Below, piece after piece: positions 9,377 to 48,756 of a stretch of DNA of 64,000 nt; positions within the stretch are counted from its first letter, which is position 1, and the number at the start of each line of letters is the position of its first letter. Source of the stretch: Dactylellina haptotyla (lineage: Eukaryota > Ascomycota > Orbiliomycetes > Orbiliales > Orbiliaceae); the NCBI GenBank assembly GCA_031310005.1, contig CM062388.1, positions 1,550,001 to 1,614,000 of the forward strand, written 5' to 3'. The translations under genes were made by a program, and so were the position numbers. The notes under the pieces were generated by a model. That model saw only the letters and a list, made by a program, of their open reading frames with translations, was not told where the DNA came from and ran no database searches.

Positions 9377-9885
9377 TGTTACATTTCGTACGTTACCTAA
9401 TGTAACGGTATAAATATGAAATACTAAGATATGCAAAACTTTCTTTCTATCTAGGATACTTAGGTTCTTTAATAAAAAGTATATATAAAATTATAAAATA
9501 TTAAAAATAATTTGTTTAAAATATATAATAATAATAAAATAAAGATAATTAAATATATTAAATTATATTTGAATTAATTAATGAAGATAGGAATATTTTA
9601 TTAATTCTAAGGATAGTCTTATATACAAGAATATTTTAATACATTTATAATAGATCATAAATTGCAATGGATTATAGTTCATAATTTATAATCTATAGTG
9701 AGTGGTGATCCACAAGATATATTATACCATAATCCAAAGTATTAAACAAATAAATAGATTTTATAATTAAATATATTAGGAATAATATATATTTATAAAT
9801 ATAAAGTATAATAATAAAAATAAAAATAATATAATATAAAATAAAATATAAATATTTATATTATTAAAATTTATAATTTGTAATA
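9377..9885 (-). repeat. LTR element 1, left LTR (3' LTR of the element)
   Basis: The outer edge (first 60 or so bases) kept CGTACG, TTACC and TAACGG words. The inner edge is fully converted to A/T, so the terminal TGTGACA is now TGTAATA. The opposite holds in the right LTR. Confidence 0.9.
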
Positions 9886-11769
9886 TTATTCTCCCTTTTT
9901 AGAATAAATTTTTATATAAGTAATTTTTCTATAAAATTTAAAATTTTATATAAATAATAGTAATTAAGTATAGGATAATAATATACCATCATTATTCTTA
10001 TATAAAAATTTGATTTTATATATTATTAATTTTTATATTAAAATTAGATTTATATAGAATAATAATTTATATTATAATATAAAGTTTATTTTAAGGTAGG
10101 TACTTATATAATTATATATATATAAAAGTATAATAATTAAATTAAGGTAGTAAAATAAAATTTAAATTATAAAATATTTTTATAAATATAAGTAATTAAT
10201 ATATTTTTAAAAATAATAATATTAGTGGATTATTATATAAAATTATTAATTAAATAATATCAAAATTAAGCTTACTATATTAAAGTATAAAAAAAAAAGT
10301 TTTAAATAATTTATAAATTTTATAAAAAATATAATTTTTTTTATATTATAGAATTTTTTAGTAAAAGATGTTTTAATTGTGTTTATTATGGTTATAATTA
10401 TATTTAGGAAATAATTAGTAAATTTTCATAATTTTTATATTACTAATAAAGTTAATTATTTTATAATAGATTATATTCTTTAATAACTAAATTAAAAATG
10501 GGCAAAATTATGTAAAACAGAGGATACTTAAGCTTTATTATTTACTAAAATAACTTAAATTTAAGCAAAAATAATGTATTTACAAAAAAAAATAGATTTA
10601 ATAAATAAGAAAGTAAAATTAATTTTTAAAAAAAAGGAATCTACTATTAAAAAATAGAAAAATTTTAAATAACTTTAAAAATTAGATCTAGAGTTATTAT
10701 CAAATAACATTAATTTTTAATAATTTCTAAATAATAATATTATTTTTTTTAAACAAAAAGTTAAATAAATATAATATATAAATCAAATTTTTTAAATATA
10801 ATCAATTGAAAAAATTCAAATTATTTTCTTTATTCAATTATATTTAAATATATTAAATATTATATAATTTTTTTGGGTTTTTTTTTAAATCACTTATTTA
10901 AAAATTTTAATATCTTTTTCTAAAAATAATTTTAAATTAGCTTCAGGAAAATATTACTTTTAATTTTTATAAATCATCTTGTGATCTATAAAATAGTAAC
11001 CATCTAATTAAATATTTATTATTATTATTAAATCTTTCAAGGATTTTTTAACTTCATATTTTATATAATCTTTATATTTTAATTCTTCATTTTCTAAATC
11101 TTCTCTTAAGCCTAAAAGAATTCTAAAAATAAAAAATATAAAAAATTAATAGATTTAAATAGATCCCAAAATTTCAAATTCAAAAATATTATTATTAAAT
11201 TTTCTAATAATAATAAAAAGTCTATATTTTTAATAATTTAATTTTTTATTTTATTATCCTTTCCATTTAATATATTTAACAAATAGATATACTTTATCTC
11301 CTTCTTTTAAAAAATATTTCATATATTATTAATTATAATAATATAATATACATTTTATTATAAATTAGAAATCTTTTATAAATTATTATAAAAATTTTTA
11401 TATTATTAATATATTTTTTATTTTCAAAATAATTTCTTTAAATATTATAAAAAATAATATTATAATAAAATTCCATTTTTAAATATTTTATAAAGTATAT
11501 ATTTAATAAATAAATATTTAAACATATTATAAATAAATTCAAAATATAATAATAATTTAACCTAATTATTCTATACTATATTAAAAACTTCTTAACCATA
11601 TTTTAATAATTTAGATAATTTATTTTATAATTCCATCTATTTAAACATATCCTTTACTAATAATATTAATTTTAATATTAATCTAATTCCTAACTAAATT
11701 CCAGAATTTATTAGCAAATAATATATTTTTATTATAAATATATTTAAATTATAATCCATATTAATTAAA

Positions 11770-11960
11770 AATTCGTTTATTATAAACTTATTCAAATTCT
11801 ATTATAAATTATTTAAAATTTTATAATTTTAAAATTATTTTACTAAATTTACAAATAATAATTAAAACTTTATCATAAATAATATTTATAAAAGATTTTT
11901 AAAAAGCATTTCTTATATAAAATTATATAAAATAATTTAAAATAATTTTTAAAATATATC
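11770..11960 (-). pseudogene. Integrase core remnant of LTR element 1
   Basis: The minus-strand translation contains a stretch reading YDKVLIIICKFSKII, which resembles the start of the Ty3/gypsy integrase catalytic domain (YDAxLVVVxRFSKMA in the family). The same stretch occurs on the plus strand at about 37,820-37,900 in copy 4, with further changes. Stops interrupt the frame on both sides. Confidence 0.7.
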
Positions 11961-12730
11961 ATAAAATTATAATTTTTATAAAATAAATATTAATTAAATT
12001 TATTTCAACAATATATATTATAAATTTTAATATATTATTTAATATATTATTATATTTAGAACTAAAAATAAAATTTAATTAAAAATTCTTAGATACATTT
12101 AATTCCTAGATATCCATAAACTCGTATATTATAATATTATTTAATAAATTATTATTAAAATTTTTTAATAAAAATATAAAAGAGGTTTTTAAAGAAAACA
12201 AATCTTTCTTTTACTATAAAATAATTTAGAATATTAAAGTTTTTTAATAATATTCTTTTTATAATAAAATATTTATTATAACTTTATTTAAAATCTTTAA
12301 TAAACTGGTTTTCTAAAGTATAAAAAGTAAAATTAAGAACTTTATTAATTATAATAATTATATATTATTTTTTTTTAAAAATAGCTCCTTTATCTAATTA
12401 AACTTCAACTATTAAATCAAATCATCAATTAATAGTGTCAGCTCCAAAATTATCTTTTCCTTTATAATATATAATTTTTATATTATATTAATTAATAAAT
12501 TCTTATTAGTAGACTTATTGTCAACTAAAATTTTTAAAAAATAAAAAGTAAATAAGATTTTTATAATCCAAATATATTATAAAAAATTCTTTTATTTAAA
12601 GATATACTTTTTATATTTTATAAGTTTAAATAATAGCTATTATTTCTTTATTATAGATAAAATATTATAATTTAATAATATTAAATTTATAAAAAAGATA
12701 AACAATAGAATACTATTCCTAAGTTAATTA

Positions 12731-12860
12731 TAACTAATATAGGCAAATTCTTAATATAGTATTAAAAATGTTTATTTCAATTTTAATAAGTAAATTAGGA
12801 TTATATAATTTAAAAATAGGGACTAAAAGAAATAATTCTTTAAATATATTAAAAATACAT
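12731..12860 (-). pseudogene. RNase H remnant of LTR element 1
   Basis: The minus-strand reading shows VPIFKLYNPNLLIKIE followed by INIF. It matches the pol segment that joins reverse transcriptase to RNase H in Ty3/gypsy elements (LLxHYNPDLPIxIETDAS in the family). The catalytic aspartate of the ETDAS box is now asparagine, a G-to-A change. Copy 2 keeps the same segment in a 70-codon open stretch at 26979-27191. Confidence 0.75.
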
Positions 12861-13189
12861 ATCTAACTAAGGATCATATCAAAGTATACACCAATTTTTA
12901 TTAATTCCAAAAAGATAATAAACATATAATTATATTATTTAATAAATTATTAATAATAATTATATAATTTTAAAAAGGTTTAAATATCTTTAACATTTTA
13001 AAATCAAAACTATTTTTAAATAATATCAACCTTTTTAGAATCTATTTTAATTCCTTAAATTATAATTATAACTCCAAAAAATTTATATTTTATAATTTTG
13101 AATTCTATTTTTTTTAATTTAATTTTAAAATTATATTTATTTAATACTTTAAAAATAATTATAATATATTATTGATATTTTTTAAAATT

Positions 13190-13340
13190 TTTACTATAAA
13201 TTAATATATTATTTAAATAAATAATATATATTTTATTAATATAGTCTTTCAACATATAATTTATAAAAATTTGGAAAAATATTAAGACATTAATTAATTT
13301 TATAGGCATAACCAAATATTCGAATAAACCATAACAACAT
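13190..13340 (-). pseudogene. Reverse transcriptase core remnant of LTR element 1
   Basis: The minus-strand translation reads YGLFEYLVMP, then a degraded FGLTNAPATFQ-like stretch, then YLNNILIYS at 13193-13219. These are the diagnostic RT motifs of Ty3/gypsy elements. The catalytic pair of the YLDD box is now NN, as expected from GA-to-AA change on this strand. Confidence 0.9.
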
Positions 13341-16300
13341 CTAAATATTATTTTCCAAATATCCTTTAAAACGACTTATAGATTATAATAAACAACAATA
13401 ATATTAAATTTAATAAAATAAATTACTCTAATAAAATGGTCTAATAATTTATCAATTCATAATAAACTATTGTAATCTTTGATAATAATAGTATTTAAAT
13501 TTCAATAATCAATACAAATTCTTAATTTTCCATTTTTTTTAGAAATAAAAAAAATTAGATATTCTATTAAAGATTTTAAAAAACAAATATATCCTTTTCT
13601 TAAATTTTCTTCAATATATTTTTTAAAAATTTTAAATTTTTTTTTAATACAAACATAAATAAGTAGAAATTTAAGAGTAATATCTTTTTATAATAATATT
13701 TTATAAATAAATTTATTAAATAAAGATAATACATCTCCATTTTTAATTTTTTCAAAAGTTCAAATTTATTTAAAAATTTATTTTAAAATTTTAAAAGGTA
13801 AAATATTTTTAATAATTTCTTTAACAGTTCTAATAATATTTTTAATTTTCAACCATATTTATTTAAAAATATTAAATTTATTATAAAAACAATGATAGGC
13901 TTCTTTATTAAAAAGATATTCTGTAAATCATAGATAAACTTCTTTTAATTATTTATAAACAATTTGTTAGATTTATCATAGATTTTGTTAACAATTATAA
14001 TAAATAAATTCAATTATCTTATTTTTGAAACTTATAATTAAATCATAATCTTCTAACCAGTTATATTTTAAAATAAGGTCATCATTAGTAAGATTAAAGA
14101 TATCAATAATTCATTTTTCAAAATATTTATTAATAATAAAAATAATATCAATTTTATATTTTACTATTTTTAAAAAGCTTCTTTTGAAAGTAATAACGTT
14201 ATACATAATACTTTTAAGTTATACAAAGAAATTATATTTTTTAATATATTTTTTTAAAATATATATAGTTTCTATTCCACTATTTACAAAAACTTGCATA
14301 AAATTTCCATTAATAATATAAAATATTTAAAAATATTATTTTTTAATTTAATTGAAGGTTCTATCAAATCCTTTCTTAATAAAGCTAAAATTGAATAATT
14401 TAATATATGTCACTATCCAAAATTTTTTTAATTTAAAATATTATACCATTTAATGTTATCAAATTCTATATTATTAACAATATTTTCTATTTTTTCCCAT
14501 TCTTAAAGATTAAATAACATTTTTATTAAAATTAGAATATTTTATTGATAGTTTTAAATATAAAGTTTTAAATCTTTCCTATAATAAAACCATTATTTAT
14601 AATTTAAATAACTTTTATAAATATATAATCTTAGAAGTTTCTTCCAATGTATTATAAAAATAATATTAGTCCATTCTTATATATAATCAATGCAAGTATA
14701 TAAATTTTTATTATAAAAATAATAATTAAAAAGTTTTAATTTGTAAAATTGGCATTTCTTTCCTCCTTTTTCAATTTCTATGACATTAATATTTAATATA
14801 ATATTAATAATATTATAATTTTCTATATATAATTAATATATCTTATAATTATATACTAATTTAATGATAAGATTTATAAAGACTTCTTCATCACTTTTCT
14901 ATATATTCATAATTAAAAGCAATTATTTAATCTATATAATCTTAATATATAAATTTAATAAAATCTATATTAAAATATCTATATAATTAATATTAATACA
15001 TTTTACAAAATTTTACACATTAATCTATAAATTGGGACCAACTTCTATTATTATCTATATAAAATGTTAAATAATTATATCCTATAGGTCCAATACCAAA
15101 TAAAATAAGTTATCTAAGGCACTAATTTTCTTAACATCTAAATATAGTGTTTTTTACAATTTTTATTAATTTTAATATTTAATCTTTGAAAATTTATTTT
15201 TTAATCGAAAATTCAATTTTCGGTAATTATATAATATCATTAATTATTAAAAAATTAATAAATCCTTCTTAAGTTAATTCTTTATACAATAAGTTGATAA
15301 AAGAGTGTTAAATAATTCTATAATTTTTTTATAAATAGATTTTAAATTTATATTAATATACAGTTTTTAAAATCCATTATAAACAAATTTTATTTTAAAT
15401 CTTATATTTTTTTTAAAAATTATTAAAAAAATTTTATATAAATTATAGGTATATAGCTCCTTCTAAAAGGGATTTTTTTTATTTAAAATAATATTTTTTA
15501 TAATAAGTTTAATATTATCTTTTTATTAAATATTTTTAATTTTTAATTTTTAAAAAATATATATTTTAAATAAAGTAATAAATAAAATAAAAATTTAAAT
15601 TCTTTTAAAGTAATTAAAATTTAAAAATAATAAAATTAATATTAAAAGATTTTCTTTATTAACTTAATAGAATATATATTAAGTTATTATTCTTTTTAAA
15701 TTTTTTTTAAATTATTAATAATTTTTTATATTCTTTAATATATTTATTATAATTTTTTTTTTAATATTTTTATAATTATATTATTTTTATAATATCTCTA
15801 ATTAACTATTTTAATATTTTTTAAATATTAATTAATTAAAAAATACTTAATATATTCTTCCTATTATATTATAATATATAAATTTATTAGATTTTAGAGG
15901 ATGATTTCTTAATTATTAATTTCAATTTTAGATTTTTCTAATTTATAGAAAATGGTTCAAAAGTATTTTAAATTTAATTATTTTTATTTTATTACTATTA
16001 ATTATTTAATCTTTAATAATTATTTTAAGGAGTGTATAGTAGATTATTTTAATTCTAAAATAATTAATTTTAATTTATTAAAAATAATTTTTAAGATTAT
16101 AGAATAATTAATTTCTTAACTATTATTATAAATTTAAATTAATTATTTTATTAATTTGATAATTTTCTTAAGAGTTAGGGAATTAATTATAATTATTATA
16201 ATTTAAAAAATATTTATTTTATATTTTTAAAAGTAGTTATTATTAAATCTTATAATTAAATTTTTAATTATATAATATTAAATTTTAAATTATATATAAT

Positions 16301-17477
16301 TATTTTAATAATTCATCTCTATATAAATTTAACTTTTTAATATAATAGATCAATTATTTTACTATATTTAGTTATAAAAATATAAATATTAATAATTTGG
16401 AAATATTTTTAACAAATTTAATTTATTATAGATTTAAATAATATAAAGGGCTTTTTTAATTTTATTTTAATATTTATAGAATTATTTAAATCCTTTAATA
16501 AAATATAAATAATTAATAAAAGTTTAAATAATATAATTATTATTAATTTTTTTATTTTTTATTTTTTATTTTTTTATATTGTATAAAATAAAAATTATAA
16601 ATATAGAAAATAATTTTAATAAAAATATAAAAAAATGGATTTTATCTTTATTATTTTTAAATTGTTAATATTAAAAATAAAAGATAGTACAAAACTTATT
16701 GGATAAATTGATCAAATTTATATAATAAATTATTAAATTTATTAAAATTTAATATTTTTATACTTTTTATTGAGTAGTAAATTAGAATAGATTAGCAAAA
16801 TTTGCTAAAAATTTATTAAAATTATTGAATATCTTTTATTATCATTATTAAAATTTTTATTAAGATTTTTAGATTTTTAAGATTGGAAACTAACTTGTAA
16901 TAGGATTTATTTTTATTTAATATAAAATAAAAATAAATTTTATTTAATCCTTAATTAGATTTTAAAATAATTAATATAGTTTTTTTTAATTATATTAAAC
17001 ATACCTTATACATTTTTATAAATTTTAATAATTGTTTAGATTATAATAGTTATTTTTCGAATTTTTTAAAATTTCTATAATTATTTTTAAATTTTATAAA
17101 TATTTATTGTTATTTAGATAATAATTTTTATTAAATTATTAATAATTTTATTAAATATATATAATTCTTTTTTTATACTTGTATAATAATATTAAAATAA
17201 ATTTTATTATTAATAATCAAAATTTGTTTTATTTTTAAATAAATTAGCTTTAAAGATTAATGGGGTAAAAATAATATTTTTTTTTATTTTTATAAATATA
17301 AAAATGTTTGATTAATTCTATAAAATTTGGTTTTTAATTTATTCATCTAAATATTATATAAATAAGGATAATTACCTTTTTATCTATAATCTCATTTTCT
17401 AAGATTATAAAATCTTTTAAATTAAAAAATATTATTATATATATGCTTTTCCTTAGCTAAGAGGTGATTAATTAAAA

Positions 17478-17990
17478 TATTATACTTTATATATTATTTA
17501 ATATAACAATATAAATATAAAATATTAAAATATACAAAATTTTCTCTTTATTTAAAATATTTAAATTTTTTAATAAAAAATATATATAAAATTATAAAAT
17601 ATTAAAGATAACTTATTTAGAGTGTGTAACAATAATAGAATAAAAATAATTAGATATATTAAATTATATTTAAATTAATTAATGAAAATAGGAATACTTT
17701 ATTAGTCCTAAAGATAATTTTATATATAGGAATGTTTTAATACACTTATAATAGATTATAGATCACAGTGGATCATGGTTTATAACCTATGATTTATAAT
17801 GAACAGTGATTTATAAGATGTATTATATTATAGTCCAAGGTACTAAATAAATAGGTAGGTGGGCTTTATAGTTAAATATATTAGAAGTAATATATATTTG
17901 TAAATATAAAATATAGTAGTAGAAATAAGAATAGTATAGTGTAAAGTAAGGTACAGGTATTTGTACTGTCAAAACTCGTGGTCTGTGACA
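17478..17990 (-). repeat. LTR element 1, right LTR (5' LTR of the element)
   Basis: The outer (right) end, about 17870-17990, kept G and C, including GTACAGGTATTTGTACTGTC and CTCGTGGTCTGTGACA. The inner (left) end has lost them: TATTATACTTTATA here, where the left LTR of the same element still reads TGTTACATTTCGTA. Confidence 0.9.
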
Positions 17991-17995
17991 AAAAT

Positions 17996-20900
17996 TAAAA
18001 AAATGTTTAAAATTTGATTTAAATTTTATTAAATTTTTTTAAATATTTATATTATTTAATAAATGCTACAATTTATGAAAGAAAATATTTTAAAATTTTA
18101 AGATAAAAACTATAAAAAAAGTCCAATTTAAATAAAAATATAAATTAAATTTTAGGAAGTTAATAAAAGATAAAGATTATTTAATTAAAATATTTTTGTT
18201 TTAAAAAAAATTTATAATTAAATATATTTTTATTAAAATAGTTTATTATTTATAATTTTATTTTTAATTATTTTATATTTATAATAATTATATTAAAATA
18301 TATTTAAAAAATATTTTTTTAAATATATAAAATTAATTTATAAATGGAATATAATTAAATGTTAATATTTAAATTTTATAATATTTTATATAATTTGTTA
18401 TTTAATTGGTAAAATAAAATAGTATTTTAAATAATATTATATTATAGATTAAATCTAATTTAAGATCTTAAATTAAATTATTTTTATTTAATTAAAAATA
18501 TTATAAATCTTATAATAGTAATAATATTTTTATAAAATTTCTTAAATATTTTATTATAAAATTTTATTTTATCAATATTAAATATATTTTTTTAAATAAT
18601 ATTGGTAAAAGGTAAATAAAATTTAAATATAATTTAAAAATTGGTTATAAATGTTTAACAATAGGTTGTTAATAATATATATTTATTAAAATTTTTATTA
18701 TTTAAAAAGTTTATTAAATATAATATATTTAATATTAAAATAATTAAAATTATTATATTATTTTAAAATATTTAATCTTAAATATAAAATATTAAATAAA
18801 AAATTATTTAATTTATAATTTTTTATTTATTATTCTTATTATTAATTTATAATATAAAATTTAAAATATATATATTTATTTTATTTATTATATTTTTATT
18901 AAAGTGTATATTAGATTTTTAATATATATAAATTAATAAAATAAATATACAATATAATTTATTATATTCTTATATAAATATTTTATAAAATTAATTAAAT
19001 ATTTAAAAATTATATTATATAATTTAAAATTTTATATTTCTTTTTTCTTTTATAAAATTAATCTGTTTTTAAAATTTATGAGTAAATATAAAAAATCTAT
19101 TTGTAAATTTTTAAAATTTATTAAAATAAAAAAATTTATTAATTATATTTTTTAAAAATTTTAATTTAATTATTTATTAAGTAAAAAGATTATTTTTTAA
19201 AAAATTAAATAAATAATAAGGGTTATTTAAAAAAATTATTGGTTTTGGTGGTGTATTATTAAACTTCTAATATTAGGGTAAGTTTTTTTTTATAATTAAT
19301 TGTGATTAAAAATATTTTTATTAATTTTATACTAATTATTTTATTTATAAAAGTAATGTTTTTTATTAACTCTTTAGTATTTATATATAATTTAATATTA
19401 ATCTTATATAAACATTTATATTTTTTTATTTTATAAATAATTTTTTAATTAAATATTTTAAATATTAAAATATAATAATGATATTTATATTTTTATTAAT
19501 TATTTATAATAGTTTGGTGTAAAATATACTACATTATTAAAATAATTTATAAAAAAATATAATTAAAAAATGTATATATTTAAAATTTTTAAAAATAAAG
19601 AAATTTGAAATAATTTTTTAAATTTAAAATAAACACAGAATTTTATTTTTATAAAAGTTTATTGATTGTATTTTTATATTTGGTATTTAATACTAAATAT
19701 TTGTAAAATTTTCTAAATAAAATTAATATAATATAATTTAATATAAAATATATTTTATAAAAGAAAATATATTAAATATATTATAATATATTTTATATTA
19801 AAAGGAATTTTCTATTAAATTTAATATAGTTAATAAAGTTTATTTAATATTATTAAAAAATTTATTTTATTAATATATAAAATAATCAATTTTATTTACT
19901 ATATTCTTTCTCCACCATTATTATAAATTTATAATCAATTTTTCATTATAATAAATAAATAAATTTAATAATATTATGATAAAATTTTTTTTTAATATAT
20001 TAATTATTAAAAATTAATATATAAATAAAAAAATAATATATAAATAAAAAAATAATGGAGATATTACCACAGTAAGATTAGCTAAATACAAAAATAATAC
20101 ATATACAACTAAAAATAATCATCTAAAATTTATAATATATAATTATATAAATAATAAAACATCCTTTATATAAAAAGGAAAAAATAATAAAAACGGTATA
20201 TAAAAAGGTAATAAAGATTATTTAAAGTTTATATTTATTTTTTAAAATTTATTATTAATTTTTAATTTTAATTTAATAAAATTAATTAATAATATAAAAT
20301 ATTTAATAAAATATATAATAAACTAAAAATAAAAAATTAAATATATTATAGTTTTAAAATATATTAAATATTAAAAAATTAATAAATTTTATTTTAAATT
20401 TTTAAATTTTAAAATATTATTAGTACCTATATTTCTATTAAATACAAAGAGCTCAATTAGTAAAAATTTATAAAATCAAAAAAACAATATTTAAAATTTA
20501 TTAATAATTGTAAAATAAATTTAAAAAATATTCAAATTTTTGTAAACTATATATATTTTTATTTTAAAATTATAAGTAAATAATTATATATTAAATTAAT
20601 AATATACTTTATTAAATTATAAAAATTTATAAAAAAGATATTAGTAATTAAAATTATTTTAATTAAAAATTTATAAATTTAAATAAAATATTTTATAAAA
20701 TATAAAAAATTTTTAAATTAACATAAAACATTTATTAATATTTTTATAATTATAAAAAATTTTTAATAATTTTTTGTGAATAAAACAATTACCAATAATT
20801 TAAGAAGAAATAATGTTTTTAATAAATATTATTTTTTAAATAATATTTTATTCAAATTATAAATGTTTATTAATAATTATCCATGTTTATTAATAATTAT

Positions 20901-23700: not shown

Positions 23701-23705
23701 AAAAC

Positions 23706-24220
23706 TGTTACACTTCGTACGCTACCCAATGTAATGGTACAAATATATAATACTAAGATATGTAAAACTTTTTCTCTATTTAGAATATTTAAATTTCTTA
23801 ATAAAAAGTATATATAAAACTACAAAATATTAAAGATAGTTTGTTTAAAATATATAATAATAATAGAGTAAAGATAATTTAGATATATTAAATTATATTT
23901 AAATTAATTAATAAAAATAAAAATTATTTTATTAGTTTTAATAATAGTATTATATATATAATAGGTTTTATATTTATTATAATAGATTTATAATTTTGTA
24001 TTATAATTTTGTAGCTTTATATAAAATTTTTAAATTTATAAATTAAATTATATTATACTATAATATGGATATTAAAATAAATAAATAGGATTTATATATA
24101 AGTAAATATATTAAAAATAATATATATTTATAAATATAAAGTGTAATAGTAGAATTTAAAATAATATAACACAAAATAAGATATAGATATTTATATTATT
24201 AAAATTTATAATCTATAATA
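23706..24220 (-). repeat. LTR element 2, left LTR
   Basis: It begins TGTTACACTTCGTACGCTACCC, the best preserved outer edge among the copies. The inner end is converted to A/T (…ATCTATAATA). Confidence 0.88.
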
Positions 24221-31722: not shown

Positions 31723-32218
31723 TATTATACTTTATACGCTATTTAATGTAATAATATAAATATACAATACTAAAATATATAAAATTTTTTCTCTATTTAG
31801 GATACCTAAATCTCTTAACAAAAAATATATACAAAATATCAAAAATAACTTACCTAAAATATATAATAATAATAAAATAAAGATAACTTAAATATACTAA
31901 ATTATATTTAAATTAATTAATAAAAATAAAAACCATTTCATCAATCCTAATAATAATATTATATACATAATAGATTCCATACTTATTATAATAGATCTAT
32001 AACTCTATACTATAACTCTATAACTCTATATAAAATCCCTAGATTTACAAATTAAATTATATTATATTGTAATATAAATACTAGAACAAATAAATAAAAT
32101 TTATAAGTAAATATATTAGGAGTAATATATATCTATGAATACAAAGTGCAGCAATAGAACTCAAAACAGTGCAGCGCAAGGCAAGGTATAGGTATTTGTA
32201 CTGTCATGGTCTGTGACA
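31723..32218 (-). repeat. LTR element 2, right LTR
   Basis: The outer 100 bases (from about 32110) kept G and C, including GTGCAGCGCAAGGCAAGG and GGTCTGTGACA. The inner start reads TATTATACTTTATACGCT. Confidence 0.88.
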
Positions 32219-35084: not shown

Positions 35085-35275
35085 AAAATAATATTAATAA
35101 TATATAAAAGCTTTAACTATAATAATATTATTAATTATATATAAGTATGAGTTTGTAAGATTAATATTTAATAATTTAAAATTATAATATATTAAGTCTG
35201 CTTTGTAGATATACATATAGAGCGGTACGGGCGAACCCGGCCTGTACGGCCTGACACGTAATCCTTATATAATTA
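35085..35275 (+). repeat. Dispersed repeat, family B, copy 2 with a G/C-retaining edge
   Basis: Homologous to 1545-1760. The last 60 bases (35215-35272) are the most G/C-rich patch between the full-length elements, with GAGCGGTACGGGCGAACCCG and CCTGTACGGCCTGACACG. In copy 1 the same positions are converted to A/T. The patch ends at TAATCCTTATAT, and Ty3/gypsy copy 4 sequence starts about 12 bases later, so this is the junction of two elements. Confidence 0.6.
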
Positions 35276-36379
35276 AATTAAAAAACAACATTTTTAAATA
35301 TTTTGTATTATCAATAAAAATCTGATATAAGTTTTTGCAAATAGTGGAGTAAAAATTATATATATTTTAGAAAAATATATTAAAAAGTATAATTTTTTAA
35401 TTTGATTTAAAAGTATTATTTATAATATTGTTACTTTTAAAGAAAATTTTTTAAAAATAATTAAATATAAAATTAATATTATTTTTATTATTAATAAATA
35501 TTTTGAAAAATATAAAATTAATATTTTTAACTTTATTAATAATAATTTTATTTTAGGATATGATTAATTAAAAGATTATAATTTAGTTATAAATTTTAAA
35601 AATAAAATAATTAAATTTATTTATTATAATTATTAATAAAATTTATATTAAATTTAACAAATTATTTATAAATAATTAAAAAAATTTATTTACAATTTAT
35701 AGAATATTTTTAAATAAAGAAATTTATTATTACTTTTATAATAAATTTAATATTTTTAAATAAATATAACTTAAAGTTAAAAATATTGTTTAAATTATTA
35801 AAAAAATTATTAAATATTTTATTTTTAAAATTTTAAAATAAATTCCTAAATAAATCTAAATTTTTAAAATATAAAATAAAAATATATTATCTTTATTTAA
35901 TAAATTTATTTATAAAATATTTGTAAAAAGGTATTATTTTTAAATTTCTATTTATTATATTTATATTAAGAAAGAATTTAAAACTTTTAAAAAATATATT
36001 AAAAAAATTTATGAAAGATACATTTATTTTTAAAATTTTTAATTAAATATTTAATTTTTTTATTTTTTAAAAAAATAAAATTATAAATTTATATTAATTA
36101 TTAAAGTTTAATACTATTATTATTAAAAATTTATAGTTTATTTTAATTAATAAATTAATAAATTATTTTATTAAAATAATTTGCTTTATTAAGTTTAATA
36201 TTATTATTATTTATTATAATTTATAAATTATTTTAAAAAACATTTGAAAATAATGTTTAAATATTATTATAATTTATTGAAATATTTAATTATATTTATG
36301 GGATTAATTAATATTCTAATATTTTTTAAACTTTTATAAATTATATATTAAAAAATTATATTAATAAAATATATATTGT

Positions 36380-36403
36380 TATTTTAATAATATATTAATT
36401 TAT
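36380..36403 (+). pseudogene. RT active-site remnant of LTR element 4
   Basis: Eight codons read YFNNILIY, with both aspartates of the YxDD box changed to asparagine. The upstream plus-strand reading (about 36245-36320) matches the FRTRYGLFEYLVMP region of the family, with stops. Confidence 0.8.
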
Positions 36404-36511
36404 AATATAAACTTTAAAAGAATATTGATAATATATTATTACTATTCTTAAAACATTAAATAAATATAATTTTAAAATCAAATTAAAAAGATAAATTTAA
36501 AATTATAAAAT

Positions 36512-36706
36512 ATAAATTTTAAAATTATTATTATAATTAAAAAAATTAAAATAAATTTTAAAATTATTATTATAATTAAAAAATTAAAATAAATTTTTAA
36601 AATTATTATTATAATTAAAAAATTAAAATAAATTTTAAAATTATTATTATAATTAAAAAAATTAAAAATAAATTTTTTAAAATTATTATTATAATTAAAA
36701 TTAAAA
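36512..36706 (+). repeat. Tandem repeat, five units of about 39 bp inside copy 4
   Basis: Five nearly identical units, each beginning ATAAATTTTAAAATTATTAT and differing by one or two A or T in homopolymer runs. The unit lies in pol just after the RT box. Copies 1-3 have only one unit's worth of sequence there, so the array arose in copy 4 after insertion, probably by slippage. Confidence 0.85.
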
Positions 36707-39676
36707 TAAATTTAAAAAATTAATATTATCCAAAAATAATTTAATTTTAAAATATTAAAATAATTTTTAAGTTTTATACAATTATTATCAATAATTTATT
36801 AAAAAATAGAATATATATTTACCATTTTTAAATTAATAAAAATTAAAATATATTTTAAAATAATTTTTAATCAAATACATATTTTTAATATTTTTAAAAA
36901 ATCTTTTTCTTAGTTTTATTTTTAAATTATATAATTTTAATTTATTTATTAAAATTAAAATAAATATATTTAATGCTATATAAAAACTTACCTATAATTA
37001 TAATTTAATTTAAAAATAATATTTTATTATTTATTTATTTATAAATTTAATATTATTAAATTATAATATTTTATTTATAATAAAAATTAATGGTTATTAT
37101 CTAAACATAAAATATGGAAAGTATATTTTTAAATAAAATTTTTTTATTATATACTTAGATTATAAGAATTTTATTTTATTTCTTATTTAAAGATTTTAAT
37201 AAATAATAAATTTATTAATAAAAATTTATTAATTAATATAATATAAAATTATATATTATAAAAGAAAAAAAATTTTAGTTAATATTATTAATTAACAATT
37301 TAATTTAATGGTTAAATTAATTAGATAAAAAAATTATTTTTAAAAAATAATATAATTATTTTAATTAATAATTTTTAATTTTATTTTATATTTTAAAAAA
37401 ATTAATTTATAAAAGATTTTAAATACAATTATTAAAATATTTTTATAATTATTAAAAATATTTTATAAATAAAAAAATTTTATTAAAAATTTTAATATTT
37501 AAATTATTTTATAGAAAAAAATTTATTTTTTTTTAAAAATTTTATTAAAAATTTTAATAATAATTTTATTAAATAATATTATAATATATTAGCTTCATAT
37601 AAATATTTAAAAATTAAATATATTTAGGAATTTTTAATTATCTTATTTCTAGTTTTAAATATAATAATATATTAAATAATATGTAAAAATTTATAATATA
37701 TATTATTAATAAATTTAATTAATATTTATTTTATAGAAAATTATAATTTTATAATATACTATTAGGATTATTTTAAATTATTTTATATAATTTTATATAA
37801 AAAATATTTTTAAAAAAACCTTTATTAATATTATTTATAATAAAATCTTAATTATTATTTATAAATTTAATAAAATAATAATTTTAAAATTATAAAATTT
37901 TAAATAATTTATAATAAAATTATATGTTTATAAAACAAATTCTTTAACCAATATAAAAATATAATTTAAATACATTTATAATAAAAATATATTATTTATT
38001 AATAAATTTTAAAATTCAGTTAAAACCAAACTAATATTAAAATTAATATTATTAATAAAAATATATTTAAATAGATAAAATTATAAAACAAATTATTTAA
38101 ATCATTAAAATATAATTAAGAAGTTTTTTAATATAATATAAAATAATTAAATTAAATTATTATTATATTTTGAATTTACTTATAATATATTTAAATATTT
38201 ATTTATTAAATATATATTTTATAAAATATTTAAAAATAAAATTTTATTATAATATTATTTTTTATATTATTAAAAAAATAATTTAAAAATAGAAAAGATT
38301 ATTAATAATATAAAATTTTTTATAAAAGATTTTTAATTTATAATAAAATGCATATCATATTATTATAATTAATAATATATAGAAGTATTTTTTTAAAAAA
38401 AAAAATTATATTTGTTTATTAAATATATTAAATAAAAAAATAATAAAGTAAAAATTAAATTATTAAAAATATATTTTAATATTATTATAAAAAATTTAAT
38501 AATATTTTAAACTCAAAATCTTAGAACTTATTCAAATTTATCAATTTTATATTTTATTTTAAAATTAATCTTTTAAGACTAAAAATCTAAAAATAAAAAT
38601 TAAAATATAAAATTATATAAAAATATAAATTTAAAATTTTTTTTAATAAATTTAATAAGAATAATAAATACTTAATTAAATAATCATTATTATATAAATT
38701 ATAAAATAATAAATATTTTTAAATATAATTTATTTTTATTATTATCTAAATTTATTTTAATAAAAAAGTATATTATAGCTTATAAAAAAATTAAAATGAT
38801 TAAAAGTTTAATTCTAAAATTAATAATTAATTAGATTATTTATAATTTTAATAAATTTTTGTTATTTTTTTTAATAAAATTATATTAGAATTATTTTTGA
38901 ATTTTTTAATTGTTCAATTATTTTTAATTTTTTTTATTTTATTAATTATTTTAGTATATTTTTTTATAAATAATATTTTTATATATTTTAATTTTAATTA
39001 ATATAATTTTATTTTTTTCAAATAATTTTTATTTAAATTTTATTTTTTTAATTTTCTAATTCTTTTATAATTTTATTTAATAATTTAATTATTTTATTAT
39101 TAAAAATTAATTAAATCTATCTAATAAGAATTAAAAATTATTTATAAAAATCTACTAGATAATTTTTTACACCCATTTTAAATATATAAATAAAATAACT
39201 AATATTTTCTAATATAATAATATAAAAATAATTGTTTTAAGTATAATATTCATAAAAAAGAAAAGTAGGAAATATTAGAAAATTTTAATTTAATTAATTT
39301 AAAAATCTTTAATATTATTGAATTTCTTTTAACATTTATCTACTGATATTATTATTTTAAAATATATTGATTACTCATATTTGTAAGAATATTTTATAAT
39401 TTAAATTTTATTTTATTATTTAATTTTTATTATATTTATATATATGTATGAATTATATAAGTATTTATTTAAAAAATAAACTTTATATAATATAAATTAT
39501 TATTTTATATAAATCTAATTTTAATATAAAAATTAATAATATATAAAATCGAATTTTTATATAGGAATAATAATAATATACTATTATTTTATACTTAGTT
39601 ATTAATATTTATATAAAATTTTAAATTTTATAAAAAAGTTATTTATATAAAAGTTTATTTTAAAAAAAAAAAATAA

Positions 39677-39792
39677 TATTATAAACTATAAATCTTGATA
39701 GTATAAATATTTATATTTTATTCTATATTATATTATTTTAAATTTTACTATTATATTCTATATTTATAGATATATATTACTTATAATATATT
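39677..39792 (+). repeat. 3' LTR of copy 4, first part
   Basis: Reverse complement of the G/C-retaining end of the other LTRs, here converted to A/T. It continues at 48344 after copy 3. The two parts join to about 529 bp, in line with the 496-516 bp LTRs of the other copies. Confidence 0.8.
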
Positions 39793-40308
39793 TGTTACAC
39801 TTCGTACGCTACCCAATATAACGGTATAAATATGTAATATTGAAATATGTAAAACTCTCTTTCTACCTAAGATATTTAGATTTTTTAATAAAAAATATAT
39901 ATAAAATTATAAAATATTAAAAATAGCTTACCTAAAGTATATAATAATAATAAAATAAAAATAATTAAATATTAAATTATATTTAAATTAATTAATAAAA
40001 ATAAGAATATTTTATCAATCCTAAGGATAGTTTTATATATAAAAATGGTTTAATATATTTGTAATAAATTATAAATCATAATAGATTATAATTTATAATT
40101 TATGATTTATAGTAAATAATAATTTATAAAATGTATTATACTATAATTTAGGATATTGAATAAGTAAATAGGTTTCGTAATTAAATTGTAATTAAATATA
40201 TTAAAAATAATATATATTTATAAATATAAAATATAACAATAAAAATTAGAATAATATAATATAAAATAAGATATAAATATTTATATTATTAAAATTTATA
40301 ATTTAATA
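39793..40308 (-). repeat. LTR element 3, left LTR
   Basis: The outer edge is preserved (TGTTACACTTCGTACGCTACCC). The inner end is A/T-converted and has lost two bases relative to copy 1. Confidence 0.85.
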
Positions 40309-43300
40309 TTATTTTTTTTTAAAATAAGCTTATATAGATAATTTTTTCATAAAATCTAAAATTTTATATAAATAATTATAAATAGATATAGAATAATAAT
40401 ATATTATTATTATTTTTATATAAAATTTAATTTTATATATTATTAATTTTTGTATTAAAATTAAATTTGTATAAAATAATAATCTATATTATAATATAAG
40501 ATTTATTTTGAAATAAATACTTATATAATTATATATATATAAAAATATAGTAATTAAATTAAGATAGTAAAATAAAATTTAAATTATAAAATATTTTTAT
40601 AAATATAAATAATTAATATATTTTAAGTAATATTATTAGATCATTATAAAATTATTAATTAAATAATATTAAGATTAGGTTTATTATATTAAAATATAAA
40701 AAAAAAGTTTTAAATAATTTATAAATTTTATAAAAATATAATTTTTTATATAATAAAATTTTTAATAAAAATATTTTAATTATATTTATTATAATTATAA
40801 TTATGTTTAAAAATAATTAATAAATTTTTATAATTTTATATTACTATTAATAAAGCTAATTATTTTATAATAAATTATATTTTTTAATAATTAAATTAAA
40901 AATAAACAAATTATATAAAACAAAAATATTTAAATTTTATTATTTATTAAAATAGCTTAAATTTAGGTGAAATAGTATATTTATAAAAAAATAGATTTAA
41001 TAAATGAGAAAATAAAGTTGGTTTTGAAATCTATTATTAAAAAATAAGAAGATTTTGAATAGCTTTAAAAATTAAATTTAAAATTATTATTAGATAATAT
41101 TAATTTTAATAATTTAAATAATAATATTATTTAAATAAAAATTAAATAAATATAATATATAAATTAAATATTTTAAATATAATTAATTAAAAAATTTTCA
41201 ACTATTTTCCTTATTTAATTATATTTAAATATATTAAATATTATATAATTTTTTTGGGTTTTTTTTTAAATTGTTTATTTAAAAATTTTAATATTTTTTT
41301 TAAAAAATAATTTTAAATTAGCTTTGGGAGATATTATTTTTAATTTTTATAAATTATTTTATAATTTGTAAAGTGACCATCTAATTAAATATTTATTATT
41401 ATTATTAAATCCTTTAAAAAATTTTTAATTTTATATTTTATATAATTTTTATATTCTAATTTTTATTTTTTAAGTTTTCTCTTAAACCTAAAAACTAATT
41501 TAAAAATAAAATATAGAAAAATTAATAAATTTAAATAGGTTTTAAGATTTTAAATTTAAAAATATTATTATTAAATTTTTAATAATAATAAAAAATTATA
41601 TTTTAATAATTTAGTTTTTTATTTTATTATTTTTATTTAATATATTTAACAAATAAATATGTTTTATTTTTTTCTTCAAAAAAATATTTCCATATATTGT
41701 TAATTATAATAATATAATATATGTTTTATTATAAATTAAAATTTTTTTATAAATTATTATAAAATTTTTATATTTTAATATATTTTTCTGTTTTTAAAAT
41801 TATTTTTTTAAATATTATAAAAATAATATTATAATAAAATTCTATTTTTAAATACTTTATAAAGTATACTTAATAAATAAATATTTAAATATATTATAAA
41901 TAAATTTAAAATATAATAATAATTTAATCTAATTATTTTATACTATATTAAAAAAATTTAATTATATTTTAATAATTTAAATAATTTATTTTATAATTTT
42001 ATTTATCTAGGCACATTTTTGATGATATTAATTTTAATATTAGTTTAATTTTTAATTAAATTCCAAAATTTATTAATAAATAGTATATTTTTATTATAAA
42101 TATATTTAAATTGTAATTTATATTAATTAAAAATTCATTTATTATAGATTTATTTAAATTTAATTATAAATTATTTAAAATTTTATAATTTTAAAATTAT
42201 TATTTTATTAAATTTATAAGTAATAATTAAGATTTTATTATAAATAATATTTATAAAAAATTTTTAAAAAAATATTTTTATATAAATTATATAAAATGAT
42301 TTAGAATTTAGAATAATCTTAAAAATACATTATAAAATTATAATTTTTATAAAATAAATATTAGTTAAATTTATTTTAATAATATATATTATAAATTTTA
42401 ATATATTATTTAATATATTATTATATTTAAAATTAAAAATAAAACTTAATTAAAATTTTTAAGTATGTTTAATTCCTAAATATTTATAAATTAATATATT
42501 ATAATATTATTTGAAAATTATTATTAAAGTTTTAATAAAAATATAAAAAAATTTTAAAAAAATAATTATTTTTTATTATAAAATAATTTAAGATGTTAGA
42601 ATTTTTAATAATATTTTTTTATTATAAAATATTTTTAATAATTTTATTTAAAATTTTTATAAATTAATTTTTAAAATATAAAAATAAAATTAAAATTTTA
42701 TTAATTAAAATAATTATATATTATTTTTTTAAAAATAATTTTTATTAGATTAAATTTTAATTATTAAATTAGGTTGTTGATTAATAGTATTAATTTTAAA
42801 AATTTTTTTATAATATATAATTTTTATATTATATTAATTAATAAATTTCTATTAATAAATTTATCATTTATTAAAATTTTTAAATAATAAAAATAAATAA
42901 AATTCTTATAATCTAAATATATTATAAAAGTTTTTTAATTTAAAAATATATTTTTATATTTTATAAGTTTGAATGATAACTATTAATTTTTATTATAAAT
43001 AAAATATTATAATTTAATAATATTAAATTTATAAAAAAATAATAATAAAATATTATTTCTAAATTAATTATAACTAATATAAATAAGCTTTTAAAGTAAT
43101 ATTAAAATGTTTATTTTAATTTTAATAAATAAATTAAAATCATATAATTTAAAAATAAAGACTAAAAAAAGATTCTTTAAAAATATTAAAAATATATATT
43201 CAATTAGGGATCATATTAAAATATACGCTTTTTTATTAATTTTAAAAATAATAAATATATAACTATATTACTTAATAAATTATCAATAATAATTATATAA

Positions 43301-45456
43301 TTTTAAAAATTTAGATATTTTTAATATTTTAAAATTAAAACTATTTTTAAATAATGTATAATGTTAATTTTTGGGATCTATTTTAATTTCTTAGATTATA
43401 ATTATAGTTTTAAGGAATTTATATTTTATAATTTTAAATTCCATCTTTTTAATTTGATTTTAAAATTATATTTATTTAATGTTTTAAAAATAATTATAAT
43501 ATATTATCAATATTTTTAAGGTTTTATTATAAATTAATATATTATTTAAATAGATAATATATATTTTGTTGATATAGTTTTTAATATATAGTTTATAAAA
43601 ATTTAAAAATACTGGGGTATTAATTAATCTTATAGGTATAATCAAATATTTAAATAAATTATAATAGTATTTAAATACTATTTTCTAAATATCTTTTAAA
43701 ACAATTTATAAAATTATAAATAATAATAATATTAAATTTAATAAAATGAGTAGTTTTAATTAATTAATCTAAAGATTTATCATTCGAGGTAAATTATTAT
43801 AATCTTTAATTATAATAACATTAAGATTTTAATAATTAATATAGATTTATAATTTTTTATTTTTTTAAAATGAAAAAATTAAATATTTTATTAAAATTTT
43901 AAAAAGTAAATATATTTTTTATAAATTTTTTTAATATATTTTTAAGTGCTTTAAATTCTTCTTTATACAAATATAAATAAATAAAAATTTAAAAATAATA
44001 CATTCTCATTTTTAATTTTTTAAAGATTCGAATTTATTTAAAAATCCATTTTGGAATTTTAAAAGGTAAAATATTTTTAATGATTTTTAATAGTCTTAAT
44101 AATATTTTTAACTTTAAACCATATTTATTTAAAAATATTAAACTTATTACAAAAATGGTGGTAGATTTCTTTATTAAAAAATATTTTGTAAATTATAAAT
44201 AAATTTTTTTAATTATTTATAAACTACTTGTTAAATATAATGTGGTTTTGTTAACATTTATAATAAATAAATTTAATTATTTTATTTTTAAAACTTATAA
44301 CTAAATTATAATTTTTAATCAATTATATTCTAAAATAAGATTATTATTGGTAAAATTAAAAATATTAATAATTTTTTTTAAAATATTTATTAATAATGAA
44401 AATAATATCAATTTTGTATTTAATTATTTTTAAAAAGCTTTCTAAAATAATAATATTATATATAATATTTTAAGTTATATAAAAATTATAATTTTTAATA
44501 TATTTTTAAAATATATATATTTCTATTTTATTATTTATAAAAACTTATATAAGATTTTTATTAATAATGTAAAATATTTAAAAATATTATTTTAATTTAA
44601 TTAAAATTTTATCAAATTTTTTAATAAAATTAGAGTTAAATAATTTGGTATATATTATTGTTTAAAACTTTTTAATTTAAAATATTATATTATTTAATAT
44701 TATCAAATTTTATATTATTAATAATATTTTTAACTTTTTCTTATTTTTAAAGATTAAATAATATACCTATTATAATTAAAATATTTTATTAATAATTTTA
44801 GGTATGGAATTTTAAATCTTTTTATAATAAAATCGTTATTTATAATTTAAATAATTTTTATAAATATATAATTTTAAAATTTCTTTTAATATATTATAAA
44901 AATAATATTAATCTATTTTTATATATAATTGGTGCAAGCATATAAATTTTTATTATAAAAATAATAATTAAAAGATTTTAATTTATAAAATTATTATTTT
45001 TTTTTTTTTAATTTTTATAATATTAATTCCAATATTATTTTAATAATATTATGATTTTCTATATAAAATTAATATATTTTATAATTTTATATTAATTTAA
45101 TTTATAATAATAGAATATTATAAAATAGATAATTTATTAATAAAATTTATAAAAATTTTATTATTTTTTTATATATTTATAGTTAAAAGTGATTATTTAA
45201 TCTATATAATTTTAATATATAAATTTAATTAAATTTATATTAGGGTGTTTATATAATTAATATTAATATATTTTATATAATTTTATATATTAATTTATAA
45301 ATTAAAGCCAACTTCTATTATTATTAATATAAAATATTAAGTAATTATATTTTATAAATCCAATATTAGATAAAACAAATTATCTAAAACACTAATTTTT
45401 AATATTTAAATATAATATTTATTTTTATAATTTTCATTAATCTTTCCAATATTTGA

Positions 45457-45548
45457 TTTTTAAAAATTTATTTATTAAAATATTTAATTTTTAAAAATTT
45501 ATTTATTAAAATATTTAATTTTAAAAATTTATTTATTAAAATATTTAA
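45457..45548 (-). repeat. Tandem repeat, three units of about 31 bp inside copy 3
   Basis: Three consecutive copies of a unit built on TTTTTAAAAATTTATTTATT plus AAAATATTTAA. The other full copies carry one unit at the equivalent place. Confidence 0.85.
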
Positions 45549-47831
45549 TTTTTAATAAATAAATAATATCATTAATTATTAAAAATTAGTAAATTTTTTA
45601 GATTAATTTTTATTTAATAAATCAATGAGAAAGTATTAAGTGGTTTTATAATTTTTTATAAATAAATTTTTAATTCATATTAATATGTAATTTTTAAAAT
45701 CTATTATAAATAAATCTTATTTTAAATTTTATATTCTTTTAAAAATTATTAAAAATTTTTATATAAATTATAAATATATAGTTTTTCTAAAAGAATTTTT
45801 TATTTAAAATAATATTCTTCTATAATAAATTTAACCTTATTCTCCTATTAAATATTTTTAATTTCTAATTTTTAAAAATATATATTTTAAATGAAATAAT
45901 AGATAAAATAAAAGTTTAAATTTTTCTAATATAGTTAGGATTTAAAAATAATTAAATCAATGTTAAAAGAATTTTTTGTTAATTTAATAAAAATAATATT
46001 AAATTACCATTTTTTTAAGATTTTTTCGAATTATTAATAATTATTTTTATATTTTTAATATATTTGTTATAGCTTTTTAATGTTTTTATAATTATATTGT
46101 TTTTATAATATTTTTAATTAGTTATTTAAATATTTTTAATTACTAATTAATTAAATAATTTTATTTAATATATTTTCTTTATTATACTAATAATATATTA
46201 GTTTGTTAAAATTTTAAAAACAATTTCTTAATTATTAATTTTGATTTTTAAATTTTTTAATTCTATAAAAATAATCTAAAAATATTTTTTAAAATCTAAT
46301 TATTTTTATTTTATTATTATTAATTATTTGGCTTTTAATAATTATTTTAAAGGATATATAGCAAATTATTCTGATTTTAAGGCAATTAATTTTGATTTAT
46401 TATAAAATAATTTTTAAAATTATAGAATAATTAATTTCCTTAACTATTATTATAAAATTTAAATTAATTATTTTATTAGTTTAAACAATTTTTTTAAAAA
46501 TTTAAAAATTAATTATAATTATTATAATTTTAAAAAATATTTATTTTATATTTTTAAAAATAATTATTATTAAATTTTATAATTAAATTTTTAATTATAT
46601 AATATTAGATTTTTAAATTATATATGATTATTTTAATAATTTTTTGTTTTTATATAGATTTTAATCTTTTTTTAATATAATAGATTAGTTGTTTTACTAT
46701 ATACCCGGCTATAAAGGCATAAGTATCAATAATTTGGAAATATTTTCTAATAAATTTAATTTATTATAGATTTTAAATAATATAAAAAGTTTTTTTAATC
46801 TTATTTTAATATCTATAAAGTTATTTAAGTTTTTTAATAAAATATGAATAATTAATAAAAATTTAAATAATATAGTTATTATTAACTTTCCATTTTTTAT
46901 TTTTTCTATTTTTTTTATATTGTATAAGGTAAGAATTATAAATATAAAAAATAATTTTAATAAAAAATATAAAAAGGAAATGGATTTTATTTTTATTATT
47001 TTAAATTATTAATATTAAAATAAAAGATAATAGCAACTTATTAGATAAATTAATTAAATTTATATAATAAATTATTAAATTTATTAAAATCTAGTACTTT
47101 TACTTCTTTATAATAAATAAACTTCTTTATAATAAATAAAAATTAAAATAAATTAATAAAATTTATTAAAAATTATTAAAATTATTAAAATATTCTTTAT
47201 TATTATTATTAAAATTTTTATTAAAATTTTTAGGTTTTTAAGATTGAAACTGATTTATAATAAAATTTATTTTTATTTAATGTAAAATAAAAATAAATTT
47301 TACTTGTTTTTAATTAGATTTTAAAATAATAGGTATTATTTTTCCTTTAATTATTTTAAATATATTTTATATATTTTTATAAATTTTAATAATTATTTAA
47401 ATTATAATAACCATTTTTTTAAATTTTTTAAAATTTCTATAATTATTTTATATTTTATAAATATTTATTATTATTTAAAATAATAATTTTTATTAAATTA
47501 TCAATAACTTTATTAAATATATATAATTTTTTTATATTTATATAATAATATTAAAATAGATTTTATTATTAATAATTAAAATTTTATTTTTATTTTTAAA
47601 TAAATTAGTTTTAAAATTATTAATAAGAATAAAAATAATACTTTTTTTTATTTTTATAAATATAAAAATATTTAATTAATTTTATAAAACTTAATTTTAA
47701 TTTATTTATTTAAACATTATATAAATAAAAATAATTATCTTCTTTATTTGTAATTTTATTTTTAAAATTATAAAATTTTTAAATTAAAAATGCTATTATA
47801 TATATTTTTAATTAAAAATAATTAATTAAAA

Positions 47832-48338
47832 TATTATATTTTATATGCTATTTAATGTAATAATATAAATATGTAATATTAAAATATATAAAAAAAAATT
47901 TTTACCTAAAATATTTAAATTTTTTAATAAAAAATATATATAAAATTATAAGGTATTAAAGATAACTCGCTTAAAATATATAATAATAATAGAGTAAAGA
48001 TAATTAAATATTAAATTATATTTAAATTAATTAATAAAAATAGGAATACTTTATTAATCCTAAAAATAGTCTTATATATAAAAATGGTTTAATATACTTA
48101 TAATAGATTATAGATTATAATAGATTATAATTTATAACCTATAATTTATAATAAACAATAATTTATAAAATATATTATATTATAGTCCAAAATATTAAAT
48201 AGGTAGATAGGCTTCGCAGTTAAATATATTAAAAGTAATATATATCTATAAATATAAAGTACGGTAATAGAAATTAGAACAGTGTAGCGCAAAGCAAGGT
48301 ACAGGTATTTGTACTGTCAAGACTCGTGGTCTGTGACA
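47832..48338 (-). repeat. LTR element 3, right LTR
   Basis: The outer end kept G and C from about 48245 (TACGGTAATAG, GTGTAGCGCAAAGCAAGG, CTCGTGGTCTGTGACA). The inner start is converted (TATTATATTTTATATGCT). Confidence 0.85.
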
Positions 48339-48343
48339 ATATT

Positions 48344-48756
48344 TGATTATAAATAATATTTATTTATTTTATATTTTTATTTATAATATAATATATTATT
48401 TGTATAATTATATATAAAAATATAAGTAAGTGAGTATTAATACTTATATAATTATATAATTATATATAAACATACAAATATACAAGTGTTTATTTTTAAA
48501 GTACACCCATATGTATATAAAACTATCATTAAAACTAATAAAATAATTTCTATCTTTATTGGTTAATTTAAATATAATTTAATATTTAATTATTTTTATT
48601 ATTATTGCATACTTTAAATGCGTTATTTTCGATATTTTATAGTTTTATATATATTTTTTATTAAGAAACTTAGATATCCTAAATAGAGAGAGAGTTTTAT
48701 ATATCTTAGTATTGTATATTCATATTGTTACATTGGGTAATGTACGAAGTGTAACA
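48344..48756 (+). repeat. 3' LTR of copy 4, remainder
   Basis: This is the reverse complement of the left LTRs. It ends ACATTGGGTAATGTACGAAG followed by TGTAACA at 48756. The outer end kept G and C, as in the other copies. It marks the right border of the A/T-rich island. Confidence 0.85.

What the first reader, a model, noticed from the sequence alone, without database searches (positions are those of the whole stretch)
9377..48756. Element edges escape RIP while the same LTR sequence on the inner side does not
In each full-length copy the outer 50-120 bp of both LTRs kept G and C. The matching positions of the partner LTR, which face the element interior, are fully converted. Left starts read TGTTACACTTCGTACG while right-LTR starts read TATTATACTTTATA. 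Right ends read GTCTGTGACA while left-LTR ends read about ATTTGTAATA. The surviving outer end of copy 4 (48700-48756) shows the same. One sequence with two fates, set only by whether it faces outward, is a natural paired experiment. It suggests mutation fades near the limit of homology between copies.
Basis: partly seen in the sequence, partly recalled or inferred. Interest (0 to 1): 0.72.

Follow-up and report, generated by a model that had tools for sequence, protein, structure and literature searches.

The report
Repeat ends escape fungal RIP mutation
In this fungal genome the mutation system that destroys repeated DNA loses its grip over roughly the last 150 bases of retroelement copies, so the same terminal sequence is largely kept where it faces outward and largely erased where it faces inward, which gives a natural ruler for how the cell recognises repeats.

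Summary
In 39 of 39 scored pairs of the window's family (LTR about 500-560 bp) the outward LTR start kept more C/G than the same columns of the inward-facing partner; the ends agree in 38 of 38 scorable pairs. Retention falls from about 0.9 at the border to 0.24-0.29 by 100-155 bp; inner ends keep 0.10-0.26, so they are not fully converted. A second family with 166-bp LTRs shows the same polarity, also in two lightly converted elements. Three solo LTRs keep both ends. In family A relative mutation dose rises about linearly from near zero over 130-235 bp, in the range of the 155-220 bp homology needed for RIP in Neurospora (PMC4858203). Gene-conversion tracts fit worse. Pairing of the two LTRs of one element predicts protected inner ends, which are not seen. 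Best reading: RIP weakens at the limit of shared homology; junction protection is not excluded. RIP and its length threshold are known; this paired profile was not found in nine paper searches, and one paper reports the opposite for de novo counts.

The parts
9377..9885 (+). copy 1 left LTR: outer start kept, inner end converted
   Evidence: flank AAAAT at 9372-9376
17478..17990 (+). copy 1 right LTR: inner start converted, outer end kept
   Evidence: flank AAAAT at 17991-17995
23706..24220 (+). copy 2 left LTR
   Evidence: flank AAAAC at 23701-23705
31723..32218 (+). copy 2 right LTR (small deletion near its end)
   Evidence: flank AAAAC after 32218
39793..40310 (+). copy 3 left LTR; copy 3 lies inside the LTR of copy 4
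   Evidence: flank ATATT
47832..48338 (+). copy 3 right LTR
   Evidence: flank ATATT at 48339-48343
48512..48756 (-). copy 4 left LTR, outer part (minus strand), start kept
39687..39792 (-). copy 4 left LTR, inner end piece on the other side of copy 3, mostly converted
   Evidence: 6 of 39 scored sites kept
1563..1728 (+). second family (B), left LTR of 166 bp, outer start kept, inner end converted
35103..35268 (+). second family (B), right LTR, inner start converted, outer end kept

Best explanation
[quoted passage not shown] RIP acts where DNA is homologous to other copies, but its dose falls to near zero at the border of homology and recovers over about 130-235 bp. An LTR end that faces the element interior lies deep inside homology shared with other full-length copies and receives the full dose; the same sequence at the outer border receives little. 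Shown here: the polarity, the gradient, its repetition in a second family, in solo LTRs and at low dose. Inferred: that the process is RIP, that the cause is the homology border, that the partners are other full-length copies rather than the sister LTR, and that recognition needs a contiguous stretch of about 150-200 bp.
For: Paired outer/inner contrast, 39/39 and 38/38 scorable. Retention by 25 bp from the outer start.89 .63 .58 .46 .24, then .18-.29 over 126-400; inner, same columns.17 .13 .25 .26 .20. Dose ratio rises about linearly from .06-.07 to 1; linear beats exponential, step and quadratic in family A; bootstrap ramp length 130-180 bp (start) and 170-235 bp (end). Family B: left LTR .99 .77 .65 .38 .30 .12 per 20 bp, right LTR mirrored. 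Two lightly converted B elements: outer parts 33/33, 30/33, 46/46, 45/46 kept against inner 28/46, 25/46, 23/33, 24/33. Solo LTRs keep both ends; the 166-bp solo keeps 78/79 sites. Two RID-like methyltransferase genes with PCQ and EQT or EET motifs are in the genome (motif rule from PMC6709928). Neurospora RIP can be triggered by 155 bp and is substantial at 220 bp (PMC4858203).
Against: No homology border away from an element end could be tested: host DNA at insertion points is AT-rich on average, as expected if converted before the insertion. In family B a quadratic rise fits better than a linear one, so the shape is not settled, and the two ends of family A give different ramp lengths. One orphan B LTR without target duplication keeps its start but not its end, 30/79 sites; later loss of its interior would explain it. 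CpG is as converted as CpA, unlike the CpA dominance reported for S. nodorum (PMC2621366). [quoted passage not shown] tritici, the opposite direction; the passages describe counts and do not mention correction for remaining cytosines.
Confidence: 0.82

Rival explanations
1. Junction protection: chromatin, a bound protein or DNA structure at the element-flank junction shields about 100 bp on the element side, irrespective of homology.
For: All borders tested are also element-flank junctions; the gradient length is close to a nucleosome (recalled, about 147 bp).
Against: Two families with different LTRs and many different flanks show such a gradient. A protector bound to the end sequence alone is excluded, because the same sequence facing inward is converted.
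Confidence: 0.12
2. Gene conversion or recombination restored the outer ends from unmutated copies.
For: Unconverted copies of family B exist.
Against: Per-copy step tracts fit worse than a gradient by 97 and 160 log units despite 41 extra parameters each; more state switches than a step predicts (16 vs 9, 18 vs 8); 41/41 distinct outer patterns at each end. Conversion has no reason to stop at outward ends only.
Confidence: 0.03
3. RIP is driven by pairing of the two LTRs of one element.
For: PMC10294615 proposes that LTRs are prominent targets because they are duplicated in close vicinity.
Against: Then both ends of each LTR would be homology borders and inner ends would be protected too; they keep only 0.10-0.26.
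Confidence: 0.03
4. Selection keeps the terminal sequences needed for integration.
For: LTR termini are integrase sites (recalled).
Against: New LTRs are templated from the 3' LTR U3 and the 5' LTR U5 (recalled), which are the inward ends here, so selection would protect the opposite ends.
Confidence: 0.02

Closest known systems
Repeat-induced point mutation (RIP), Neurospora crassa
   Same: C:G to T:A on both strands, limited to repeated DNA, homology length needed near 155-220 bp (PMC4858203, passages and section 11 read); RID-like genes present here
De novo RIP distribution in Zymoseptoria tritici tetrads (PMC10294615, passages read)
   Same: Uneven RIP along LTR elements; little leakage into flanks there
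   Different: Reports the highest mutation number in the distal windows of LTR elements; here accumulated conversion is lowest at the outer ends. Leftover cytosines at ends could reconcile the two (inference).
Escape of short repeats and MITEs from RIP (PMC9970103, passages read)
   Same: Repeats below about 200 bp are said to be hardly affected; the 166-bp solo LTR here keeps 78/79 sites
   Different: Here a similar length shows up inside long elements as a gradient at each border
RIPCAL profiles in Stagonospora nodorum (PMC2621366, passages read)
   Same: Long non-tandem rDNA copies hit especially in their central regions
   Different: Family X0 showed slightly more RIP towards the alignment ends; no outer/inner LTR comparison in the passages seen

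Membership tests
RIP | C-to-T and G-to-A transitions, both strands | tested here: met
   C and G columns both lost; 1-5 other differences per 166-bp LTR in family B
RIP | acts on repeated DNA | tested here: met
   188 starts and 208 ends of the family; three islands without a match in the DNA held keep GC 0.35-0.39 inside AT-rich blocks
RIP | preference for CpA | tested here: inconclusive
   retained away from borders: CpA .11-.16, CpG .13, CpT .22-.26, CpC .29-.38; CpG equals CpA
RIP | RID/Masc1-type methyltransferase with EQT or EET instead of ENV | tested here: met
   C5:386181 (PCQ, EQT) and C7:1112643 (PCQ, EET); motif rule from PMC6709928; full genes not checked
RIP | happens in the sexual phase before meiosis | not testable with these tools
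   needs crosses
LTR retrotransposon | direct LTRs beginning TG and ending CA, 5-bp target duplication | tested here: met
   26 of 30 pairs with identical 5-bp flanks; outer ends, a few of them converted
LTR retrotransposon | gag-pol coding region | not tested
   interior heavily converted and not read through

The most novel reading that the evidence does not exclude
RIP works in patches of nearly fixed size, about 150-200 bp, each of which must lie wholly inside shared homology. Element borders then record a linear dose ramp whose length equals the minimum homology that triggers RIP, so any heavily mutated fungal genome carries a ruler of its own recognition unit.
Probability: 0.35. Interest if true: 0.75.

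Novelty: new variant of a known kind. Interest (0 to 1): 0.62.

Why it matters
How duplicated DNA is recognised without recombination is an open question, and the measurements seen here come from engineered repeats in Neurospora. LTR pairs give an internally controlled measurement of RIP strength against distance from a homology border in any genome with RIP. They could yield the size of the recognition unit across fungi, explain why short repeats escape, and offer another reading of the report that de novo RIP is most frequent at element ends.

Tried and rejected
Flank test: if any junction were protected, host DNA next to insertions should keep C/G; on average it is flat at 0.05-0.13 GC over 100 bp (44 flanks on each side; single 100-bp flanks of the tile and window elements range 0.00-0.28), but hosts were probably converted before insertion, so this does not decide. 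Broken copies (nested sets on C1 and copy 4) offered no evident protected internal break among the islands; same caveat. Strand polarity: differences between C and G are small and not tested for significance; at the right border G is kept more than C in the bins from 26 to 100 bp (.79/.63.67/.49.45/.36), at the left border there is no consistent order. Linear ramp as a universal law: not upheld in family B. The B end pattern was taken from one converted copy and fits fully unconverted ends poorly, so its count (30) was not used. L069 was first treated as a left LTR; its LTR is truncated by other sequence and it was set aside. Rows dropped: 11 of 96 LTR rows from the alignment (two were duplicates, nine were scored apart); in family B 7 of 31 rows for length, two of them with no end found. 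Of 11 B stretches fetched, five 166-bp LTRs were scored (the fifth, C8:2531896, keeps 27/33 in its outer 80 bp and 20/45 beyond), three had other lengths and three no recognisable end. One search timed out; one search repeated it with a larger word. Ten paper searches: nine on the profile, one on the RID motif.

Full report
What was checked. The window lies at C10:1,550,001-1,614,000 of a 39.8-Mb, 11-contig genome. Positions 1-49,000 are 4-17% GC per kb, the rest 39-49%. The LTRs at 9377 and 17478 differ as described: outer 50 bp 0.28 GC against 0.04 in the partner. Target duplications are AAAAT, AAAAC and ATATT for copies 1-3.

Unbiased collection. Two 35-base patterns with Y for C/T and R for G/A were searched in the whole genome with up to two mismatches: 188 starts and 208 ends, none for the reversed control. 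Because the patterns accept converted and unconverted letters, they do not favour preserved copies; about the first hundred of each were listed. Twenty 10-kb stretches (seventeen of them a 170-kb block on C1) and 60 short stretches around LTRs were fetched, besides loci, whose query was a preserved left start and so favours preserved starts. 96 LTR rows were found; 85 with both ends cleanly recognised were aligned after collapsing C with T and G with A, so the alignment itself ignores conversion. The short stretches were chosen from the listings where both LTRs of an element could be placed.

Result in family A. Sites are columns with C (or G) in at least 15% of rows, 155 in all. Left LTRs (41) keep .89.63.58.46.24 in successive 25-bp bins from the outer start and .18-.29 over 126-400; right LTRs (40) keep .17.13.25.26.20 in the first five bins. 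At the other end right LTRs keep .34.56.71.85.91 towards the outer border and left LTRs .10.17.15.12.12. A 5% site threshold gives the same picture. Of 30 elements with both LTRs aligned, 30 show outer above inner at the start and 30 at the end; 26 have identical 5-bp flanks. Nine further pairs, including window copies 2 and 3, give 9/9 at the start and 8/8 scorable at the end; the ninth has too few inner sites. One row (L027, C2:16985) was reassigned to right LTR by hand for later calls; three rows fitted neither class by the flank rule.

Shape. Taking minus the log of retention as dose, the outer/inner dose ratio in family A rises .07.25.38.59.78.96, 1.02 per 25 bp at the start and .06.15.30.46.60.81, 1.06 at the end. 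A linear ramp fits better than exponential saturation, a step or a quadratic at both ends. Resampling copies, the linear form won 78 and 65 of 100 against a 1.5-power (22 and 35), exponential and quadratic none; ramp length 130-180 bp at the start and 170-235 bp at the end. Sites within one copy are not independent, hence the resampling. C and G are both lost at both borders, with small differences that were not tested.

Second family. Islands of higher GC elsewhere in the AT-rich blocks led to another LTR element with 166-bp LTRs, present in the window at 1563-1728 and 35103-35268. Its starts are also bimodal, 63 hits and no reversed-control hit. With one unconverted natural LTR as reference, 12 left LTRs keep .99.77.65.38.30.12 per 20 bp from the outer start and .17-.31 beyond, and 8 right LTRs mirror this. 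Here a quadratic rise fits better than a linear one. Two lightly converted elements (C5:58065/64622 and C9:9134/2578) already show the polarity: outer parts 33/33, 30/33, 46/46 and 45/46 kept, inner parts 28/46, 25/46, 23/33 and 24/33. So the pattern is not merely what is left at saturation.

Solo LTRs. Where both ends are borders, both are kept. Family A at C5:3719252 keeps 11/11 sites in its first 25 columns and 12/12 and 2/2 in its last 30, with TTTTT flanks. A second family A solo at C1:4218977, split by another insertion, keeps 10/11 in its first 25 and 11/12 plus 2/2 in its last 30, with ATCAA flanks. A family B solo at C2:2360828 keeps 78/79 sites although its near flanks are AT-rich, with AAAAT flanks if one further A belongs to the LTR. 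Against this, an orphan B LTR at C1:4334375 without target duplication keeps its start but not its end, 30/79 sites in all.

Alternatives. A copy-by-copy step (a tract with 0.97 retention and a border of its own) fits worse than the common gradient: -1664 against -1567 and -1887 against -1727 log units, though it has 41 extra parameters; all 41 outer patterns are distinct at each end. Pairing between the LTRs of one element predicts protected inner ends and is contradicted. Selection for transposition would act on the inward ends, which template new LTRs (recalled). Junction protection by chromatin cannot be excluded, because no informative internal homology border was found; host DNA beside insertions is AT-rich on average, as expected if it had been converted before.

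Mechanism. The mutated letters, both strands, the repeat dependence and two RID-like genes with PCQ and EQT or EET motifs point to RIP (motif rule PMC6709928). CpA and CpG are converted about equally, which is not the classic picture. In Neurospora 155 bp of perfect homology can trigger RIP, 220 bp gives substantial RIP, and mutation number follows length between 220 and 520 bp (PMC4858203, passages); another paper cites a 400-bp minimum (PMC10294615). The ramp length found here falls near the former values. If mutation came in patches of fixed size that must fit within homology, a linear ramp of patch length would follow; exponentially distributed patches would give the rejected exponential form. 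This last step is inference, and family B does not follow the linear form.

Literature. Nine searches on the profile, one on the RID motif, and passages of twelve papers showed no outer/inner LTR comparison in what was seen. Most subscription papers are not held, so prior description elsewhere is possible. In PMC4858203 one Neurospora construct shows few mutations in its first ~130 bp while another with the same reference does not (section 11); full profiles are figures and were not seen. PMC10294615 (passages) reports that the distal windows making up 5% of element length hold 35% of de novo mutations within elements in Z. tritici, mainly in LTR elements. The passage describes counts per window; if ends keep cytosines longer, as here, counts could peak there even at a lower per-cytosine rate. 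That is a suggestion to test.

Limits. 

Noticed in passing
C1:4.205-4.375 Mb, C5:1.60-1.75 Mb, C3:2.19-2.31 Mb, C9:1.04-1.14 Mb and the window on C10: Hits of the family cluster in stretches of about 50-170 kb on several contigs, AT-rich where fetched (C1 and C10); they could be centromeres.
   Followed up: no
window 1-48756: Nested insertions: copy 3 sits in the LTR of minus-strand copy 4; a family B element (LTRs at 1563 and 35103, taken as one element) seems to sit in copy 4's interior, with copies 1 and 2 between the two B LTRs.
   Followed up: partly
C1:4347058-4372615: Three-deep nest of family A elements: one inserted in another at about position 7585, a third in that one at about 7780.
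   Followed up: partly
listing, eight start pairs on C1, C2, C3, C6, C7 and C9: Family B has eight pairs of LTR starts without conversion in the 35 matched bases, alongside heavily converted copies, so RIP may be weak or rare at present.
   Followed up: partly
C5:386181 and C7:1112643: Two RID-like methyltransferase genes, one with EQT and one with EET in place of ENV.
   Followed up: partly
family A left LTR columns 126-425 against its inner end: The LTR middle keeps somewhat more C/G (.18-.31) than the inner end (.10-.17); not explained.
   Followed up: no
window about 48784-48900 and L069 about 340-430: By eye, a further similar sequence with leftover GC flanks copy 4 and also adjoins a truncated family A LTR on C5.
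   Followed up: no
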